The position numbers were made by a program, and so were the translations under genes. A stretch of DNA of 64,000 nt from Clavibacter sepedonicus. GTDB taxonomy: Bacteria > Actinomycetota > Actinomycetes > Actinomycetales > Microbacteriaceae. The stretch spans positions 2,852,001 to 2,916,000 of the forward strand of contig NC_010407.1 of NCBI RefSeq assembly GCF_000069225.1, read 5' to 3'. The notes beneath the pieces are model-generated. The model was given only the letters and a program-made list of their open reading frames with translations, had not been told where the DNA came from and made no database searches. Positions 29,138-29,699 of this stretch are shown here, piece after piece (position 1 is the first letter of the stretch; each line of letters starts with the position of its first letter).

Positions 29138-29699
29138 CGGTCACCCCGGTCACCCCGGTCACCCCGGTCACCCCGGTCACCCCGGTCACCCCGGTCACCC
29201 CGGTCACCCCGGTCACCCCGGTCACCCCGGTCACCCCGGTCACCCCGGTCACCCCGGTCACCCCGGTCACCCCGGTCACCCCGGTCACCCCGGTCACCCC
29301 GGTCACCCCGGTCACCCCGGTCACCCCGGTCACCCCGGTCACCCCGGTCACCCCGGTCACCCCGGTCACCCCGGTCACCCCGGTCACCCCGGTCACCCCG
29401 GTCACCCCGGTCACCCCGGTCACCCCGGTCACCCCGGTCACCCCGGTCACCCCGGTCACCCCGGTCACCCCGGTCACCCCGGTCACCCCGGTCACCCCGG
29501 TCACCCCGGTCACCCCGGTCACCCCGGTCACCCCGGTCACCCCGGTCACCCCGGTCACCCCGGTCACCCCGGTCACCCCGGTCACCCCGGTCACCCCGGT
29601 CACCCCGGTCACCCCGGTCACCCCGGTCACCCCGGTCACCCCGGTCACCCCGGTCACCCCGGTCACCCCGGTCACCCCGGTCACCCCGATCACCCCGAT
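29138..29699. repeat. 9-bp minisatellite, 61 perfect tandem copies
   Basis: The unit CGGTCACCC repeats 61 times without error from 29138 to 29686, then once as CGATCACCC and a final CGAT. It fills most of the 745-base gap between the FUSC and protease genes. On the minus strand every unit supplies a GGGG run separated by TGACC, a dense G-quadruplex pattern; GGTCACC is also a near-palindrome. The unit is a multiple of three and contains no stop, so all six frames stay open through it. No start codon and ribosome site puts it convincingly into a protein. Confidence 0.97.

What the first reader, a model, noticed from the sequence alone, without database searches (positions are those of the whole stretch)
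29138..29699. 61-copy perfect 9-bp minisatellite with dense G-quadruplex potential
The unit CGGTCACCC repeats 61 times without a single change, plus one variant copy. The minus strand shows a GGGG run every nine bases with TGACC between, so four consecutive units satisfy a G-quadruplex rule and about 15 could form in tandem. GGTCACC is also nearly self-complementary, allowing cruciforms. It separates a FUSC transporter from a secreted protease and could act as a replication pause site, an insulator or a length-variable regulator of the protease. Perfect homogeneity suggests recent expansion or active homogenisation.
Basis: partly seen in the sequence, partly recalled or inferred. Interest (0 to 1): 0.72.

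Follow-up and report, generated by a model that had tools for sequence, protein, structure and literature searches.

The report
Long repeat before a protease gene
A nine-letter DNA motif repeated 61 times without error sits just in front of a secreted protease gene in a plant-associated bacterium; it looks like a recent stutter of the DNA-copying machinery that might dampen the gene and could serve for strain typing, but it is not a new kind of element.

Summary
In detail: an exact period-9 run at 29138-29688 holds 61 perfect CGGTCACCC units, followed by one variant unit. It is the only such array in its genome, and none of 17 other Clavibacter species genomes has even two tandem units.

The main new result is position. 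Six sister species carry the same protease gene behind the same FUSC gene, without an array. Against the nearest sister, homology on the left runs up to a conserved promoter-like block (CGnnCGTCYG-N8-TAnnGT), and on the right resumes exactly at CGATCGCAG. Subtracting 61 units leaves 141 bp from the TA box to the ATG, against 117-140 bp in the six sisters. So the array is a clean expansion between a putative -10 box and the start codon, probably in the transcribed leader of a metzincin-like secreted protease.

Quadruplex potential is real by rule (15 motifs) but lies on the template strand; the mRNA side is C-rich and folds into short hairpins. Pause-site and insulator roles gained no support. 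Copy-number variation between isolates, and any effect on expression, could not be tested. Ordinary in kind, extreme in degree.

The parts
27959..29080 (+). FUSC-family gene upstream (373 aa)
   Evidence: PF13515 35.1 bits, cut-off 25.6; matched in 18 of 18 genus genomes
29118..29141 (+). Promoter-like block CGGACGTCCG-N8-TACGGT; TACGGT 29136-29141 read as -10 box (inferred)
   Evidence: Aligned block in six sister leaders; pattern CGRWCGTCTGN{7,9}TANNGT hits 6 of 18 genus genomes, once at each of these six loci plus one other place in G003; the window's copy misses the pattern by CCG for CTG
29138..29688 (+). Tandem array: 61 perfect CGGTCACCC units (29138-29686) and two further bases in register; the first unit overlaps the last four bases of TACGGT
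29687..29695 (+). Variant last unit CGATCACCC
29696..29825 (+). Rest of the presumed leader, starting at CGATCGCAG, with GACAGGA before the ATG
   Evidence: Aligned from its first base to sister L063: score 112, best of 500 shuffles 43
29826..31220 (+). Secreted metzincin-like protease gene (464 aa, HELGHNMSLFH; signal-peptide-like N-terminus by my reading)
   Evidence: Reprolysin_3 22.9 bits (cut-off 22.4) and Peptidase_M66 20.7 (20.6), both only just over; conserved ATG and GACAGGA in sisters

Best explanation
A short-unit tandem repeat that arose in the lineage of this species by replication slippage or unequal recombination, from a leader that held an imperfect 9-bp direct repeat (CGGTC....CGATC). 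It lies between a putative -10 box (29136-29141) and the protease ATG (29826), so the TA-to-ATG stretch is 690 bp instead of 117-140 bp. Shown: the sequence, its absence in the sister genomes searched, array-free sister leaders, clean junctions against the nearest sister. Inferred: that the block is the promoter, that the array is transcribed, that slippage made it. Most likely effect (not shown): none or a graded reduction of protease expression through a long hairpin-prone, C-rich leader and a G-rich template strand. It is not a frame-switching locus. Copy number should vary between isolates.
For: 61 identical units and one variant at the right edge; two-unit pattern in 1 of 99 relatives, the window's own genome, and all 60 places in that genome are this array. 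Six sister genomes have the orthologous protease behind FUSC without any array, a seventh (G015) a divergent protease, also without. Nearest sister L063: right flank aligns from CGATCGCAG on (score 112, best of 500 shuffles 43), left flank up to TACGGT (score 30, reached by 4 of 500); TA-to-start 139 bp there, 690 - 549 = 141 here. Promoter-like block nearly confined to these loci. Perfect long arrays are the most mutable kind (PMC3899988, passages).
Against: No transcription data; a sigma-70 consensus scan found no promoter-like site in 28900-29900. The window's block departs from the pattern at one base that is constant in the six sisters, so the promoter may be altered. The left flank aligns above shuffles only with L063; for the five other sisters 68 to 448 of 500 shuffles reach the score. 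No second isolate was seen, so ongoing slippage is not shown. The pattern of the block was derived from the loci it finds.
Confidence: 0.62

Rival explanations
1. Functional length-variable regulator: copy number tunes the protease and is kept by selection.
For: Position between a conserved promoter-like block and the ATG; intact protease under purifying selection, pairwise dN/dS 0.31-0.35 to the four nearest orthologues; precedent of promoter repeats with copy-number change in Mycobacterium tuberculosis (PMC12817950, abstract and section 12).
Against: Absent from all sister loci seen, so it is not needed for the gene; no copy-number or expression data; dN/dS cannot speak for the short time since the expansion.
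Confidence: 0.15
2. Quadruplex-based replication pause site or insulator between the two genes.
For: 15 quadruplex motifs in the array.
Against: Both neighbours are intact and co-oriented without such an element in the sister genomes; hairpins compete on both strands; replichore orientation not resolved.
Confidence: 0.05
3. Assembly artefact: the true array has a different length.
For: Perfect repeats are easily miscounted; reads were not available here.
Against: The run is 551 bp and would fit within one Sanger read (read type recalled); assembly errors are expected to collapse rather than expand repeats (argument in PMC12817950 section 12); the array ends in a variant unit and clean flanks.
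Confidence: 0.08
4. Coding repeat: the array encodes part of a protein.
For: Several frames are open through it, among them (RSP)n from GTG 29099 and (GDR)n on the minus strand.
Against: In the protease frame the first ATG/GTG/TTG after the preceding stop is 29730, past the array. The (RSP)n frame has no relative of the same kind: two hits at E <= 0.001, both partial, with other proline-rich or RSP-like stretches (only 7991 candidates were scored). The other frames were not searched; they overlap FUSC or the protease.
Confidence: 0.03

Closest known systems
VNTR loci of Clavibacter used for MLVA typing (PMC3691591, passages)
   Same: Tandem repeats in the same genus, copy number differs between strains.
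   Different: Typed loci have 20-45 bp units; the authors report only a few 6-8 bp repeats with around 10 copies in C. michiganensis NCPPB 382. Here 61 copies of a 9-mer; variation untested.
Promoter tandem repeats of Mycobacterium tuberculosis (dop, lpdA, cysG; PMC12817950, abstract and section 12)
   Same: Tandem repeat in the promoter-proximal region of an actinobacterial gene, proposed to tune expression.
   Different: Units of 54-58 bp (cysG, lpdA) in few copies, placed upstream of leaderless promoters, with shown copy-number change; here a 9-bp unit in 61 copies, probably downstream of the -10 box, no variation data.
Contingency loci with repeats between promoter elements or in reading frames (PMC3899988, passages)
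   Same: Simple repeats at the start of a gene.
   Different: Here the repeat does not separate two known promoter elements and lies outside any credible reading frame.
Genomic quadruplex motif clusters
   Same: G-runs of four every nine bases on one strand.
   Different: Rule-based potential only; no folding evidence.

Membership tests
Short-unit tandem repeat (micro/minisatellite) | Head-to-tail copies of a short unit, far above background | tested here: met
   by the definition in PMC3899988 (units up to ten bases) it is a microsatellite rather than a minisatellite
Variable-number tandem repeat (VNTR) | Copy number differs between strains of the species | not testable with these tools
   One genome per species held; no second isolate seen
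Promoter tandem repeat with copy-number tuning | Repeat lies in the promoter-proximal region of a gene | tested here: met
   Between promoter-like block and ATG; promoter itself inferred
Promoter tandem repeat with copy-number tuning | Copy number alters expression | not testable with these tools
   No expression data
Frame-switching contingency locus | Repeat within the reading frame, unit not a multiple of three | tested here: not met
   9-bp unit; first start codon of the protease frame is 29730, past the array
Quadruplex element | G3+N1-7 pattern, four runs | tested here: met
   15 motifs on the minus strand
Quadruplex element | Folds as a quadruplex in solution or in cells | not testable with these tools
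   RNA parameters favour a quadruplex for the minus strand (-46.3 against -38.1 kcal/mol); no DNA quadruplex energies, no experiment
Dispersed or mobile repeat family | Copies elsewhere in the genome or at other places in relatives | tested here: not met
   All 60 two-unit matches in the genome lie in this array; no other of 99 relatives

The most novel reading that the evidence does not exclude
The array is a species-specific rheostat: copy number in the transcribed leader, with quadruplexes on the template strand and hairpins in the mRNA, sets the output of a secreted protease and shifts by slippage within and between populations, giving a nearly clonal pathogen a quickly tunable extracellular enzyme.
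Probability: 0.15. Interest if true: 0.6.

Novelty: new member of a known kind. Interest (0 to 1): 0.33.

Why it matters
If copy number varies, this would be a single-locus, high-resolution marker for a species whose three compared genomes share 100% ANIm (PMC7692107, passage). If it also affects expression, it would extend promoter-repeat tuning to a plant-associated actinobacterium, with a much shorter unit and far more copies than the mycobacterial cases. The sister leaders give natural array-free comparisons.

Tried and rejected
Coding repeat: rejected. Mobile or dispersed element: rejected. The three-unit pattern also hit one other of 396 phylum genomes and five viral contigs, all with 3.4-4.2 copies; their gene context was not examined. 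RNA family at the array: none, the three Rfam hits of the window lie elsewhere. Plasmid relatives of 28500-30500: no megablast match. Replichore by GC skew: uninformative. Copy number in other isolates of the species: no route found; records near the window are left out of the collections and one genome per species is held. Transposase_mut in the genome: no match, no bearing.

Literature: the text 'cggtcaccc' occurs in 107 papers of the library; I saw only the ten listed, none about Clavibacter, which is no proof that the locus is undescribed. A 2019 C. sepedonicus VNTR study is cited in PMC9190974 (passage); it was not found among the three papers, and this locus could be among its markers. 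Papers: PMC3691591, PMC7692107, PMC9190974 and PMC3899988 seen as passages; PMC12817950 as abstract and section 12; all others as search listings only.

Full report
Identity. Loci fetched with the FUSC protein carry Clavibacter titles in 6 of 8 cases. The window lies at C2:2852001-2916000 of a genome with contigs of 3,258,645, 94,791 and 50,350 bases. From recall these are the lengths of the chromosome and two plasmids of Clavibacter sepedonicus ATCC 33113; no call names the strain. A review dates that strain's genome to 2008 and names its plasmids (PMC9190974, passages).

The array. The exact period-9 run is 29138-29688: 61 perfect CGGTCACCC units, then CGATCACCC (29687-29695), then CGATCGCAG (29696-29704). 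TRF score 1113. In twenty 20-kb stretches of the same chromosome the best TRF score is 130 and the longest exact array of period 4-60 has 7.5 copies. All 60 two-unit matches in the genome lie here.

Distribution. The two-unit pattern occurs in 1 of 99 genomes searched, the window's own; the 17 other genomes of the genus have none. The three-unit pattern occurs in 2 of 396 phylum genomes (a sample), the second with 3.6 copies, and in five viral contigs with 3.4-4.2 copies.

Sister loci. FUSC is matched in 18 of 18 genus genomes, the protease in 9 of 18. At the 18 FUSC loci, 8 have the protease directly behind FUSC: this genome, G001, G003, G004, G005, G007, G017, and G015 with a divergent form. 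The other 10 have the methyltransferase there instead, convergent with FUSC. The protease is thus an accessory gene at this site. The seven other protease-bearing loci show no exact array of period 6-15 with 2.5 copies or more in about 4.1 kb each.

Junctions. Against the nearest sister (L063, G007) the left flank aligns up to and including TACGGT and the right flank from CGATCGCAG on. Scores against 500 shuffles of the flank: right flank 112 for L063 (0 reach), also 0 for L057, L067 and L069, 2 for L064, 47 for L058; left flank 30 for L063 (4 reach), but 129, 448, 68, 83 and 93 for L057, L058, L064, L067 and L069, so the left flank is recognisable only against L063. In L063 the site reads TACGGTCTGCTCGATCGCAG, an imperfect 9-bp repeat that could have seeded the expansion (inference). 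TA-to-start is 690 bp here, 141 after taking off 61 units, and 132, 128, 139, 117, 140 and 129 in the six sisters (the start was taken as the first ATG or GTG shortly behind GACAGGA). The whole FUSC-protease gap is 745 bp here and roughly 178-224 bp in the six (for two of them the protease start was projected, not read).

Promoter-like block. CGRWCGTCTG-N7-9-TANNGT occurs in 6 of 18 genus genomes, once at each of the six sister protease loci, plus one further place in G003, and nowhere for the reversed control. The pattern was derived from these loci, so its presence there is circular; its near-absence elsewhere is not. The window reads CGGACGTCCG-N8-TACGGT (29118-29141), with CCG where the six sisters have CTG, so it fails the pattern. 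I read TAnnGT as a -10 box. A sigma-70 consensus scan found nothing in 28900-29900, weak evidence in so G+C-rich a genome. If the reading is right, transcription starts near 29148 and the array is nearly all in the 5' leader (inferred).

Structure. Fifteen non-overlapping quadruplex motifs lie on the minus strand of the array; the window as a whole has 24 (21 minus, 3 plus). G4Hunter is 1.44. As RNA, eight minus-strand units fold at -46.3 kcal/mol with quadruplexes allowed and -38.1 without; eight plus-strand units at -24.7 either way. As DNA, without quadruplex energies, -14.9 (minus) and -12.0 (plus). The protease is on the plus strand, so the G-rich strand is its template and its mRNA is C-rich. 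dnaA lies at C2:397, but sampled GC skew does not resolve replichores; I make no claim on leading or lagging strand.

Coding. In the protease frame the first start codon after the preceding stop is 29730, past the array. The (RSP)n frame starts at GTG 29099, upstream of the presumed transcript; its search gave two partial hits with proline-rich or RSP-like stretches.

The protease. 464 aa, HELGHNMSLFH, Pfam Reprolysin_3 and Peptidase_M66, both only just over their cut-offs. Pairwise dN/dS (Nei-Gojobori, my script) is 0.31-0.35 to G003, G004, G007 and G017, 0.63 and 0.50 to G001 and G005, and 0.21-0.39 among the first four: an intact gene, constrained over the time since these species split. 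An identical protein is listed on 14 contigs, the longest 74,482 bases, so other assemblies with this gene probably exist; their flanks could not be read.

Judgement. Best supported is a lineage-specific slippage expansion in the leader of the protease. Whether its length varies and whether it alters expression are open. Precedents are Clavibacter VNTR loci (PMC3691591, passages) and mycobacterial promoter repeats (PMC12817950, abstract and section 12). In kind it is ordinary; in copy number and purity it stands out in its genome.

Noticed in passing
G016:C1:735641-736757: The FUSC gene matches as two overlapping pieces in different frames, so it looks frameshifted, or carries a sequencing error.
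   Followed up: no
L092 (G003:C48:42761-42784): The only further hit of the promoter-like block in 18 genus genomes lies upstream of a 248-aa ORF with a signal-peptide-like start; possibly a second gene under the same control.
   Followed up: partly
31065-31123: A second, imperfect 9-bp repeat (about 5.7 copies of GCGATGCCC) lies inside the 3' part of the protease gene and encodes an Ala-Met-Pro-rich tail.
   Followed up: no
11021-11085 and 43439-43497, minus strand: Rfam matches over the gathering score: Guanidine-III riboswitch (54.9 bits) and msiK cis-regulatory RNA (60.4 bits).
   Followed up: no
29138-29688: Each unit holds GGTCACC, a site of the restriction enzyme BstEII (GGTNACC, recalled), so the array would be cut in every unit.
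   Followed up: no
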